From Enterobacter mori LMG 25706 (GTDB lineage: Bacteria; Pseudomonadota; Gammaproteobacteria; Enterobacterales; Enterobacteriaceae): 64,000 nucleotides of DNA. The translations under genes and the position numbers were made by a program. The number at the start of each line of letters is the position of its first letter. Within the stretch, counting starts at the first letter, position 1. The DNA lies in contig NZ_GL890774.1 in assembly GCF_000211415.1 (NCBI RefSeq), positions 503,748 to 567,747 on the forward strand. Reading direction: 5' to 3'. A model generated the notes under the pieces. It was not told the DNA's origin, made no database searches, and saw nothing but the letters and a program-made list of their open reading frames with translations. Of this stretch, positions 3,189 through 58,948 are shown in pieces.

Positions 3189-3226
3189 CAATTTCCACCG
3201 TCATGGATCAACCTGACCACATGTTT

Positions 3227-3290
3227 GCTGGCGTTGCCGGCTGCATGCCCAGGCAGTCGAGACCTTCGAGACTGCGGTGCTTTATTGCAC
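3227..3290 (+). promoter_or_regulatory. Structured leader element, copy B
   Basis: Stem 1 is GCTGGC/GCCGGC (3227-3232 with 3236-3241, one wobble). Stem 2 is CAGTC/GACTG (3254-3258 with 3270-3274). Between them is the CATGCCCAGG linker also seen in copy C. A short GTGC/GCAC hairpin (3277-3290) takes the place of stem 3. It lies about 100 bases upstream of the gene at 3393. Confidence 0.5.
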
Positions 3291-3335
3291 TGGTTGGCCT
3301 GTTCTATCGGCGCATACCGCGCCACTCACTCAACC

Positions 3336-3357
3336 CACAAGGGACCCCTCCCTTGTG
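3336..3357 (+). promoter_or_regulatory. Pre-RBS hairpin
   Basis: CACAAGGGA (3336-3344) and TCCCTTGTG (3349-3357) pair perfectly around CCCC, 24 bases before the AAGGAG of the next gene. Confidence 0.65.
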
Positions 3358-3392
3358 GCGGGAATCCCTTGCTTTTCCTCAAGGAGATCCCA

Positions 3393-5376: not shown

Positions 5377-5465
5377 CGTGCGGCGAACGAACAATAGGGC
5401 TGCGAACCAGTACCGATTCCGGATAGCCGGCTGGCGCAGTGGATGCCACGCTACCGCCATGTTGC

Positions 5466-5572
5466 GCTGACCCCGGTCAGCAACATGCCCAGGTAGCCAT
5501 TGGTCTTCAAGGCTACGGCGCGGTTCCGTCCGCGTGATCACACCAGTTCGCACTCGGCATCCCAGCGCGAAC
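5466..5572 (+). promoter_or_regulatory. Structured leader element, copy C
   Basis: Stem 1 GCTGACC/GGTCAGC (5466-5472 with 5475-5481), stem 2 TAGCC/GGCTA (5494-5498 with 5511-5515), stem 3 GTTCGC/GCGAAC (5546-5551 with 5567-5572). Compared with copy A, paired positions change together (GTCCGC/GCGGAC to GTTCGC/GCGAAC; CAGCC/GGCTG to TAGCC/GGCTA). It lies 140 bases upstream of the DUF3577 gene. Confidence 0.6.
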
Positions 5573-5647
5573 GACCGTCGAGCAATCGGTGGTGATGCCA
5601 ACCTGGTTGTTGCCAGATCTCACGATCCATCAACCCGCGCGGGGGTT

Positions 5648-55797: not shown

Positions 55798-55975
55798 TCA
55801 TACGGTTTTCGTCGCCACACGGCCATCATGAGCGCATCCAGCGCCAGTTCGCGTGAGAGAGCGGGTTTCATTGACCAGCCCACCACATTCCGGGCGAAGA
55901 GATCGGTGACGACTGCCAGATACAGCCCGCCCTGCCAGGTACGGAGTAGAGTAAGAGGCAGGACGTAGTCGGACT
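55798..55975 (-). pseudogene. IS3-family OrfB fragment
   Basis: The - strand reads [49 protein letters not shown], the middle of an IS3-family DDE transposase including the second catalytic Asp. No ends. Confidence 0.75.
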
Positions 55976-56208
55976 ATTTTCCTGCCACTCCTCCCCAAAC
56001 CTGACGTACACCTTTCAGCGCATCCAGCTTTCCGTCTAAATGCTGGCTAATGCCATTGCCACTTCCGGATACCGTTACGTGTACGTGTTTCTGGTCTCTG
56101 TCCTCATTAAGGGTTACCCTCGGGCAGACACCAGCTGGACAACTTCTTGCCTTGCCCGACCATCCGGTACAGGATCTCGCCCGCAAGATTGCCATGGCCG
56201 GTTCTATA

Positions 56209-57222
56209 TTAACGGGCCAGCCGGTCAGCCAGCTTCCAGAATACCACACGGTCGATATAACTGAAAATTTTCGCCTTAAAATCAACGAACTGGTAGAACG
56301 CATCCCAGAACCTCAGTTTCCGGTTGAGTTGACCAACCATATCGATCTTATTTTCACTGTAATTGCTTGATAACAATGTCGTCAGGGATGCCGCGAAGTT
56401 TCTGGCCTTATCCCGTGGAATTGTCGTGACTACCCGCATATCACCATAGCGACTGCGTTTGCGGATGATTCGATGTCCCAGAAAGTTAAAGCCATCATTA
56501 ACATGGGTGATTCTGGTCTTGTCCATGTTCAGCCTGAGTTTCAGGCTGTCTTCGAGCACGCTACGACACTCCTCCCTGATGGCTCCCGCCTGTGATTTAG
56601 TGCCTTTGACGATGAGGACGAAATCATCGGCATAGCGGCAGTACCCCCACCGCGGGTTCCAGAGTTTGTCGCGAACATCCTGCGGTGCACTAACCAGCAA
56701 CGCACGAAGCTGATTAATCGCTTGCGTGCGGGCTTTGACTGCACTACGCCGGGCAACGCTAATAATCCGAAGAGCTTCACACGCGCCGGACTGCATTTTT
56801 GGTATGGCCTTGCTACTCCCCGATAGCACCGTACGGGCGGCATTCTCTGCATCCAGTGGATCTGATTTCCCTTCAAGACTACGTTTTGAGCGATTTGGCC
56901 CGGTTAACTTCAACCACATAAATGCCATTCTTAATGAGATAACGTGTTCCCTTGCATAGTACCGCGCGGCCTTTTTCAGGATATCCCGTTCTTCTTCCGT
57001 ACACTTCAGTTGCGCCCTGAGCTTCAGAATTTCGATTTTTGCCTCCAGCAAATCCCGGGCATGCTGCTCATTGTTATCGGGCCTGATGGCCCGCAGCAAT
57101 TTATAAAGGCTATGTGTAGAAACGCCCAGACGCCCGGATACTTCGGCAACGGAATAACCGCGCTCCGTTATCTGACGGACGGCTTCTTCCTTAAATTCAG
57201 GTGTAAATCGTGGTGTGCCCAT
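56209..57222 (-). pseudogene. Three-way fusion: IS3 OrfA + IS110 transposase + intron RT
   Basis: One open frame of 337 codons. Residues 1-92 are IS3 OrfA (starts MGTPRFTPEFKEEAVRQ). About 100-188 are an IS110-type transposase core (GKSDPLDAENAARTVLSG and SVARRSAVKARTQAINQL). From about 189 to the end it is a group II intron reverse transcriptase (YCRYADDFVLIVKG with YADD at 197-200, and FNFLGHRIIRK). A stop ends the RT part, and its continuation is readable for 33 more codons. Chance fusion is far more likely than a selected protein, but the frame is open throughout. Confidence 0.75.
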
Positions 57223-57233
57223 ACGCTCCTCCT

Positions 57234-57410
57234 TGTATCTCGAAAGTGGATTACTATGAACTGGCTTAGATTTGGCAAAGTCTGTGTAGTCCGATTCCTC
57301 CCGGGGTTATTGAAGCCCGTAGCATAGCCATTGACGCACAGGCTGAGCCGTTCATCTGAAGCCCGAACAGTTGTCCGAACTTCAAATCGTATTTGCAAGG
57401 GGGGGTATAG
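57234..57410 (+). ncRNA. IS110 bridge RNA candidate
   Basis: Two stem-loops. Target loop: stem GTGTAGTC/GACGCAC (57284-57291, 57333-57339), inner hairpin CGGG/CCCG (57302-57319). Its left side TCCTCC (57296-57301) equals the left flank (57227-57232), and its right side AGCATAG (57321-57327) is the exact complement of the right flank CTATGCT (58400-58406). Donor loop: ACAGTTG (57367-57373) equals the element right end (58393-58399), and TGCAAG (57394-57399) pairs with the left end CTTGTA (57232-57237, one wobble). This fits the bridge RNA design of IS621. Confidence 0.85.
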
Positions 57411-58379
<969 letters not shown>

Positions 58380-58449
58380 TCGCGCTCGAAAGACAGTTGC
58401 TATGCTCAAACTATAGGGCAGGATCGTCTACCGGGGTGGGGGCAGTCCA

Positions 58450-58948
58450 GTCGCGGATAAGCATCAGCAGACGCTGGTTATCTTTATCACGCGCCGAGAC
58501 CGGGTTGTGCAGCCACGCATAGAACCCGGCCCGGGCGACATTCAGTACCCGACACATCGTCATCACACCCCATACAGTGCGGTGTTCATTGATAAAGCGG
58601 TACTTCAGTCGGGCTCCCTTGCAAAGTACCGCGCGGCCTTTTTCAGGATATCCCGTTCTTCTTCGGTGCGTTTGAGCTGCGCCCGGAGTTTCAGGATCTC
58701 GCTTTTGGCTTCCAGTAAATCCCGGGCATGCTGTTCGCTGTTATCAGGTTTGATAGCCCGTAGCCACTTGTAGAGGCTGTGTGCGGAAACGCCCAGACGG
58801 TCGGATACTTCGGCAACGGAATAACCGCGCTCCGTTATCTGACGGACGGCTTCTTCCTTAAATTCAGGTGTAAATCGTGGTGTGCCCATACGCTCCTCCT
58901 ATACTCAAACTATAGGGCAGGATCGTCTACCGGGGCGGGGTCAGTCCA
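58450..58948 (-). mobile_element. IS3-family element, copy 2 (truncated)
   Basis: The outer end is at 58948 (TGGACTGACCCCGCCC on the - strand). It keeps the leader, a complete orfA and the first 55 or so codons of orfB (KYRFINEH ... LLMLIRD), cut at 58449 by copy 1. Confidence 0.8.
58605..58889 (-). CDS. IS3-family OrfA (HTH protein)
   Basis: 94 residues, complete. RRGYSVAEVSDRLGVSAHSLYKWLRAIKPD-type HTH (about 21-50) and a leucine zipper (LLEAKSEILKLRAQLKRTEEERDILKKA about 58-85). It normally works with OrfB by frameshifting; here OrfB is truncated, so no transposase can be made from this copy. The intact leader served as reference to map the IS110 insertion. AGGAGGAG precedes the ATG. Confidence 0.9.
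   Translation of the reverse strand: MGTPRFTPEFKEEAVRQITERGYSVAEVSDRLGVSAHSLYKWLRAIKPDNSEQHARDLLEAKSEILKLRAQLKRTEEERDILKKAARYFAREPD

What the first reader, a model, noticed from the sequence alone, without database searches (positions are those of the whole stretch)
57234..57410. A bridge RNA whose four guide segments match this very insertion
The left end of the IS110-family element folds into a target loop and a donor loop. The target loop carries TCCTCC, equal to the left flank, and AGCATAG, the exact complement of the right flank CTATGCT including the CT core. The donor loop carries ACAGTTG, equal to the right end of the element, and TGCAAG, which pairs with the left end CTTGTA. All four matches fall at the positions predicted from the IS621 bridge RNA model, and the borders were set independently by comparison with an uninterrupted IS3 leader. 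I do not know whether this element has been described.
Basis: partly seen in the sequence, partly recalled or inferred. Interest (0 to 1): 0.9.

Follow-up and report, generated by a model that had tools for sequence, protein, structure and literature searches.

The report
IS621-like jumping gene with bridge RNA
This is a real, ordinary member of a recently described class of bacterial jumping genes that choose their landing site with a small guide RNA; here the RNA is aimed at the leader of another jumping gene, and a relative in other bacteria is aimed at the end of elements like this one.

Summary
Window 57234-58401 is a 1168-bp IS110-group element with an open DEDD/Ser recombinase gene (57411-58379) and a bridge RNA in its left end (57266-57404). 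A covariance model built only from other subfamilies finds this RNA as its one strong hit in the window (E 1.6e-28). Across relatives the target guides change with the flanks: of all 40,320 ways to pair eight guide groups with eight sets of sites, only the true one reaches the observed match. The empty site exists in uninterrupted IS3-family leaders.

It is a new member of a known kind: IS621 bridge RNAs, and ISEc21 aimed at IS3 elements, are published, and NCBI's model already names this protein an 'IS110 family RNA-guided transposase'.

Two things go further. Five of eight guide groups have their main target in another mobile element. And in Xenorhabdus an IS621-like element carries guides matching AGCAA|CT|GTCTT, the reverse complement of this clade's right end (also the window element's); 6 of 9 copies found sit in such an end.

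The parts
57234..58401 (+). IS110-group insertion sequence (left end, bridge RNA, recombinase gene, right end, one CT core copy), 1168 bp
   Evidence: junctions read; length; the empty site exists in other records
57227..57233 (+). left target half TCCTC plus CT core, in the leader of an IS3-family orfA, over its Shine-Dalgarno-like stretch (GGAGGA on the other strand)
   Evidence: (orfA ATG at 57222 on the minus strand)
58400..58406 (+). CT core plus right target half ATGCT
57266..57404 (+). bridge RNA (target loop then donor loop)
   Evidence: covariance model R1 built from other subfamilies, 129.8 bits, E 1.6e-28; pair covariation
57296..57301 (+). left target guide TCCTCC
57321..57327 (+). 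right target guide AGCATAG (complement of CTATGCT)
57367..57373 (+). left donor guide ACAGTTG (same as the right end of the element)
57394..57399 (+). right donor guide TGCAAG (pairs with the left end CTTGTA)
57252..57257 (+). -10-like TACTAT; with the ends joined it lies 17 bases after TTGCTT, which is made of right end + core + left end (inferred promoter)
   Evidence: read at this fixed spacing, 18 of 20 distinct junctions have TANNAT there; no shuffled control was made
57411..58379 (+). IS110 recombinase, 322 aa; D12, E56, D98, D101, S240 line up with IS621 D11, E60, D102, D105, S241
   Evidence: PF01548 + PF02371; NF033542 211.9 bits against cut-off 140; IS621 and ISCro4 alignments; positions
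58392..58399 (+). right end GACAGTTG (left half of the donor site)
58892..58910 (+). uninterrupted IS3 leader, an internal empty-site control with one mismatch

Best explanation
An IS110-group insertion sequence with an open recombinase gene, whose bridge RNA, encoded in its left end, is programmed for TCCTC|CT|ATGCT, a site in the leader of an IS3-family element just upstream of its orfA. The recombinase-RNA complex would pair its target loop with the IS3 leader and its donor loop with the joined ends of the element, cut next to CT by serine attack and exchange strands, leaving a single insertion without target duplication. Shown here: anatomy, active-site residues, conserved RNA structure, co-change of guides with flanks (well) and with ends (few cases), and the existence of the empty site. 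Inferred from IS621 and ISEc21: transcription from a promoter formed when the ends join in a circle, the chemistry, and activity.
For: Recombinase family and residues. A model from other subfamilies hits only this place strongly. Structure: 94.0% of cells paired against 84.4% in shuffles (0 of 500 as high), covariation score 0.379 against 0.198 (0 of 500), 16 pairs changed on both sides against a mean of 11.7 (2 of 500); slid controls score 0.027-0.085 (on an alignment fitted to the structure). Target guides: 27 distinct guide/site pairs in 13 guide classes, mean match 4.78/6 left and 4.22/5 right against 3.32 and 1.64 when guide sets are shuffled among classes, 0 of 5000; weighting eight guide groups equally, 4.91 and 4.35 against 3.33 and 1.75, and of all 40,320 permutations only the true pairing reaches either value. 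L056 and L057 differ by one base in the RTG and by the matching base in the flank. Donor guides: the three elements with RDG ..GTAAG have left end CTTAT; the other hits with an identified left end have CTTGT, L008 excepted; L048 has LDG ACGGTTA and right end ACGGTTA|CT. Empty site: the best match to the 57-base joined flank is at 99% or more in 41 of 866 E. coli records with a match and in 126 of 792 plasmid records.
Against: No expression or activity data. The single-sequence fold is no better than shuffles. Some relatives sit where their guides match poorly: L009 right 0/5, L010 left 3/6 and right 1/5, L012 and L043 left 3/6, L040 right 3/5 (5/5 with wobble), L076 and L084 right 2/5 (4/5 with wobble). 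The left match in the window is only five non-core bases, shorter than the nine-base LTG of IS621 (nine from a Methods passage). 13 of 16 own-clade loci share one target, so within the clade there are few independent sites. The joined-end promoter has no control.
Confidence: 0.95

Rival explanations
1. The flank matches are inherited: copies spread with their IS3 host by homologous recombination or together with it, so guide and flank agree by descent rather than by guided insertion.
For: 13 of 16 own-clade loci sit in the same IS3 leader. In the Xenorhabdus group D, six copies with the same protein score (L072, L075, L078, L079, L081, L083) have differing right flanks past a short common tip, but five of them share the left flank, so they are not independent.
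Against: L032 sits between unrelated genes and shares little beyond TCCTC|CT|ATGCT. Groups with other guides have other flanks that match their own guides, and only the true pairing of groups reaches the observed match.
Confidence: 0.03
2. The match is a chance coincidence in a decayed element.
For: The fold z-score is only -0.73.
Against: Open reading frame with the active-site residues; 0 of 20,000 shuffles give all four matches in order; permutation tests.
Confidence: 0.01
3. Target choice is made by the protein; the RNA matches the target only because it was copied from it.
For: Not testable by sequence alone; the protein changes along with the guides between subfamilies.
Against: L056 and L057, both from Klebsiella pneumoniae plasmids, track a one-base target difference in the RTG. 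Seven own-clade proteins that align in one piece are 86-94% identical to the window protein and use one guide. IS621 and ISEc21 were redirected by changing the RNA in published work (PMC11208160 abstract; PMC11187229 section 12).
Confidence: 0.02

Closest known systems
IS621 (Durrant et al. 2024, PMC11208160; PMC11208158)
   Same: IS110 group, DEDD + Ser recombinase, bridge RNA in the left end with target loop then donor loop, CT core, guides for left and right target and donor halves
   Different: aimed at an IS3 leader, not REP; left guide match shorter and right guide match longer; no room before the target stem for the 5' stem-loop of IS621 if transcription starts at the circle promoter (inferred)
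ISEc21 (PMC11187229)
   Same: IS110 family, upstream non-coding region, seekRNA, target inside IS3-family elements, promoter formed in the circle
   Different: ISEc21 targets codons around the second catalytic D of IS3 transposases; this element targets the leader upstream of orfA; ISEc21's transposase is longer (358 aa)
ISCro4 (PDB 9t56; only the PDB entry name was seen)
   Same: recombinase homologue, E 7.4e-31 over query residues 9-319
   Different: guides not compared

Membership tests
IS110 family, IS110 group (IS621-like) | DEDD RuvC domain plus Transposase_20 domain | tested here: met
   PF01548 and PF02371 above cut-offs; NF033542 above cut-off
IS110 family, IS110 group (IS621-like) | catalytic D, E, D, D and Ser | tested here: met
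   D12, E56, D98, D101, S240 against IS621 (alignment); residue roles from passages of PMC11208158
IS110 family, IS110 group (IS621-like) | longer non-coding end upstream of the gene, with a bridge RNA | tested here: met
   177 bases upstream against 20 downstream; model hit
IS110 family, IS110 group (IS621-like) | guides match target and donor halves around a CT core | tested here: met
IS110 family, IS110 group (IS621-like) | 5' stem-loop before the target loop, as in IS621 | tested here: inconclusive
   no such stem is in the 139-base model region; the transcript start is only inferred
IS110 family, IS110 group (IS621-like) | circular intermediate; RNA bound by recombinase; guided insertion | not testable with these tools
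   needs experiment
IS1111 group | non-coding RNA region downstream of the gene | tested here: not met
   the RNA is upstream and only 20 bases lie between stop codon and core
IS1111 group | subterminal inverted repeats of 7-17 bp | not tested
   no search for them was made

The most novel reading that the evidence does not exclude
Bridge-RNA elements have been aimed at one another. In Xenorhabdus an IS621-like element (33% identical to the window recombinase; best solved relative IS621, E 3e-92) carries guides for AGCAA|CT|GTCTT, the reverse complement of the right donor end AAGAC|AG|TTGCT of the window's IS110 clade, and is found inserted there. Such an insertion splits the donor site and the -35 half of the inferred circle promoter, and so should trap the host element. 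Because a donor end must match its own donor guide it is hard to change, and so makes a stable target. The window element has the same end and would be a target.
Probability: 0.6. Interest if true: 0.6.

Novelty: new member of a known kind. Interest (0 to 1): 0.42.

Why it matters
It is a clean natural demonstration, with an internal empty-site control, that bridge-RNA guides predict where an IS110 element sits, in a subfamily distinct from IS621. It adds a set of naturally re-aimed guides (13 classes in eight groups) useful for judging guide rules, failures included. If the wider reading holds, these elements form a guide-based food chain among bacterial transposable elements: IS3-family, IS630-like, IS1111-like and group II intron hosts below, and an IS621-like element aimed at the IS110 elements above.

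Tried and rejected
Single-sequence folding of 57234-57410: no signal. Rfam: no bridge-RNA family hit. Own genome: one element copy, and no perfect second target; the 12-base pattern with one mismatch gives 6 sites against 8 for the reversed-pattern control. My reading of the L013 right flank as an IS982-type gene is recalled and got no Pfam match, so it is not counted. The targets of L060, L040, L041 and L043 were not identified (ORFs read by eye only). I took the L095 host to lie in a group II intron because its flank nearly repeats that of L068, but Rfam finds no group II match in L095 or L077. Plasmids hold no match to the Xenorhabdus element at E 1e-100, and 1 of 392 family genomes does at E 1e-120, itself a genome of that same genus, so it is not shown to reach the window's organism group.

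Rows dropped: one search was given 67 sources and 61 matched (none in L020, L026, L028, L046, L050, L074); not given to it: L001-L005, L018, L019, L023, L024, L027, L035, L037-L039, L051, L064-L066, L085. Of the 61, one search dropped 20: seven for no TTGTAT left end (L008, L025, L044, L045, L047, L049, L063) and thirteen for no GACAGTT[GA]CT right end (L014, L017, L021, L042, L048, L058, L059, L067, L069, L070, L077, L080, L082); seven of these thirteen show the second element's junction (L014, L021, L069, L070, L077, L080, L082). L031 was dropped for a non-CT core. L036, L037, L038, L039, L064, L065 and L069 lie on contigs of the same length as L007, L008, L012, L013, L016, L015 and L014 and are taken as the same loci; L036 was still among the 40 rows but adds no distinct pair.

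Full report
WHAT IS THERE. Window 57234-58401 is a complete insertion sequence: left end TGTATCTC, bridge RNA, a 322-residue recombinase (57411-58379), right end GACAGTTG and a CT core copy. The protein carries both IS110 Pfam domains, passes the curated NCBI model 'IS110 family RNA-guided transposase' at 211.9 bits against a cut-off of 140, and aligns over residues 9-319 with the solved IS621 and ISCro4 recombinases. Its D12, E56, D98, D101 and S240 line up with IS621 D11, E60, D102, D105 and S241, mutation of any of which abolished recombination (PMC11208158, passages seen). The genome holds one copy.

THE INSERTION. The left flank reads GCTCCTC and the right flank ATGCTCAAAC around one CT. 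This is the leader of an IS3-family element whose orfA starts at 57222 on the minus strand, so the insertion lies about ten bases before that start codon. An uninterrupted leader with one different base lies at 58892-58910. The joined 57-base site finds 866 E. coli records (best place at 99% or more in 41) and 792 plasmid records (126). All five hits listed, and three of the five, lie under an IS3-family transposase annotation; the rest have none.

THE RNA. Folding this one sequence proves nothing (z -0.73). I therefore aligned 14 relatives from other subfamilies, built a covariance model and searched the window: one strong match, 57266-57404, E 1.6e-28, next best E 10. Of 67 sources given, 61 carry a match at E 0.01. 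On 45 distinct sequences the structure pairs in 94.0% of cells against 84.4% in column shuffles (0 of 500 as high); 16 of 34 pairs show changes on both sides (mean of shuffles 11.7; 2 of 500 reach 16); slid versions score far lower. The target-loop stem carries seven such pairs, and the donor-loop hairpin has an A-U/U-A exchange (25 and 18 sequences). That alignment was fitted to the structure, which favours it; the unfitted alignment of 14 has 4 of 34 pairs with double changes.

GUIDES AND TARGETS. Borders were set by the conserved element ends alone. Of 61 hits, 41 had both ends; one with a non-CT core was dropped. The 40 rows give 27 distinct guide/site pairs in 13 guide classes. Mean match is 4.78 of 6 left non-core bases (best of three registers, also allowed in the null) and 4.22 of 5 right non-core bases. 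Shuffling guide sets among classes gives 3.32 and 1.64; none of 5000 shuffles reaches either value. Because classes are related, I repeated it with eight guide groups of equal weight: 4.91 and 4.35 observed, 3.33 and 1.75 on average over all 40,320 permutations, and only the true pairing reaches the observed values. L056 and L057 differ by one base in the right guide (GTGTATCAG, GTATATCAG) and by the matching base in the flank (CTGATAC, CTGATAT). Results against: L009 matches 0 and L010 1 of 5 on the right, L010, L012 and L043 3 of 6 on the left, L040 3 of 5 on the right (5 with wobble), L076 and L084 2 of 5 on the right (4 with wobble). Of 16 distinct own-clade loci, 13 sit in the IS3 leader; L032, L012 and L034 do not.

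DONOR GUIDES. The donor ends hardly vary, so the test is weak but consistent: L044, L045 and L049 have RDG ..GTAAG and left end CTTAT; the other hits with an identified left end carry ..CAAG or ..CAAA with CTTGT, except L008, whose left end reads CTACTTA. L048 has LDG ACGGTTA and right end ACGGTTA|CT.

PROMOTER. Joining right and left ends of each element gives TTGCTT (TTACTT in one) and, read at a fixed 17-base spacing, TANNAT in 18 of 20 distinct junctions (TACTCT in L031, TATGCT in L071). No shuffled control was made. A promoter made by the circle was reported for ISEc21 (PMC11187229, section read). From its place, transcription would start near 57264-57266, where the covariance model begins (the model's start was my choice of alignment edge); this is inference.

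WHAT THE RELATIVES AIM AT. Flank pieces, searched apart: L012 rve domains (left piece above cut-off, right piece below), L056 and L057 HTH_Tnp_1, L016 and L058 DDE_3 (one of three L016 pieces above cut-off), L072, L075 and L073 DEDD_Tnp_IS110 beside the site, L068 RVT_1, with an Rfam group II match (41.5 bits, cut-off 40) that begins in the flank and runs across the junction. I read these as IS3 orfB, IS2-type orfA, IS630, an IS1111-type leader and a group II intron; those element names are recalled, only the domains come from calls. By guide group, 5 of 8 have their main target in a recognisable mobile element; three (L013; L060; L040/L041/L043) are unassigned. Exceptions within groups: L032 between ABC-transporter and FecCD genes, L009 by a PAAR gene, L010 by a phosphonate-binding gene, L076 in a prophage tail gene.

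ONE BRIDGE-RNA ELEMENT AIMED AT ANOTHER. Several Xenorhabdus relatives had odd right ends, GACAGATACTGTG (GATAGATACTGTG in L070). I reasoned that a second element with right end ACAGTAT|CT sits there on the other strand and that its guides should read AGCAA and AAGACAG; the script looked for them. The junction is printed for eight loci, seven of them distinct; L014 and L021 show only the second element's right end, L070, L074, L077, L080 and L082 also its gene. The left ends read carry GGAGCAACTT and AAGACAG (8 of 8). The protein is IS110-type, best solved relative IS621 at E 3e-92, 33% identical to the window recombinase. Of 30 genomes of that genus, 4 have it at E 1e-120, nine copies in all, but six of the nine are in one genome. 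The genus is named from contigs shared with named Xenorhabdus records. Left half AGCAA matches 5/5 in 6 of the 8 copies with a left flank, right half GTCTT 5/5 in 7 of 9, both fully in 5 of 8. Five of nine (L087, L090, L091, L094, L095) abut a host IS110 gene found in the host search, and L092 abuts a host right end; L093 matches both halves but its host is not recognised; L088 and L089 match one half only. In L095 the host's own flank nearly repeats the L068 flank, which suggests a triple nest, but Rfam has no group II match in L095. 40 of 41 right ends in my set read AGCAACTGTCTT on the other strand, but that set was selected with a pattern that allows only small departures. Plasmids show no match at E 1e-100, and 1 of 392 family genomes does, of the same genus.

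WHAT IS KNOWN. Seen: PMC11208160 (outline, sections 6, 7, 12, passages), PMC11208158 (section 7, passages), PMC11187229 (section 12, passages), PMC1525189 (passages); other papers as search listings only. IS621 inserts in REP sequences; ISEc21 inserts in IS3-family transposase genes; a natural re-aiming (ISMch6) is described. So the mechanism, and the use of IS3 as a host, are known. I saw no paper describing this element or IS110-on-IS110 aiming in the listings of searches; that library lacks most subscription journals, and ISfinder was not available, so the element may well have a name.

VERDICT. The surprise lies in the related loci.

Noticed in passing
L014, L021, L070, L074, L077, L080, L082; elements in L087-L095: An IS621-like element inserted on the opposite strand in the right end of IS110 elements of this clade in Xenorhabdus, with guides that match that end.
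   Followed up: yes
L013 (about 1257-1395): The Photorhabdus copy has a tandem duplication of about 69 bases of its left end that ends exactly at its own left target guide (..GAGTTGCC|CT|TGTATC): looks like the element recombining into its own guide DNA, which necessarily equals half its target.
   Followed up: partly
L009, L010, L022 (Klebsiella pneumoniae ATCC 13883): Three copies with the same guides: one at a matching site, two at sites that match poorly (right half 0/5 and 1/5): off-target insertions or another route.
   Followed up: no
L012: Trabulsiella copy, its gene with stops, sits about 17 codons from a DNGPE motif of an rve-domain gene, near the region of IS3 transposases that ISEc21 targets, although its guides are those of the leader site; only the right half matches.
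   Followed up: no
56209-57222 (-): Mosaic ORF: IS3 OrfA start, an IS110 fragment and a group II intron RT/maturase fragment in one frame; the IS3 host is itself broken.
   Followed up: no
1083-1225, 3210-3361, 5448-5598 and 2242-2391, 55946-56032: Three radC RNA motifs and two group II intron matches (Rfam).
   Followed up: no
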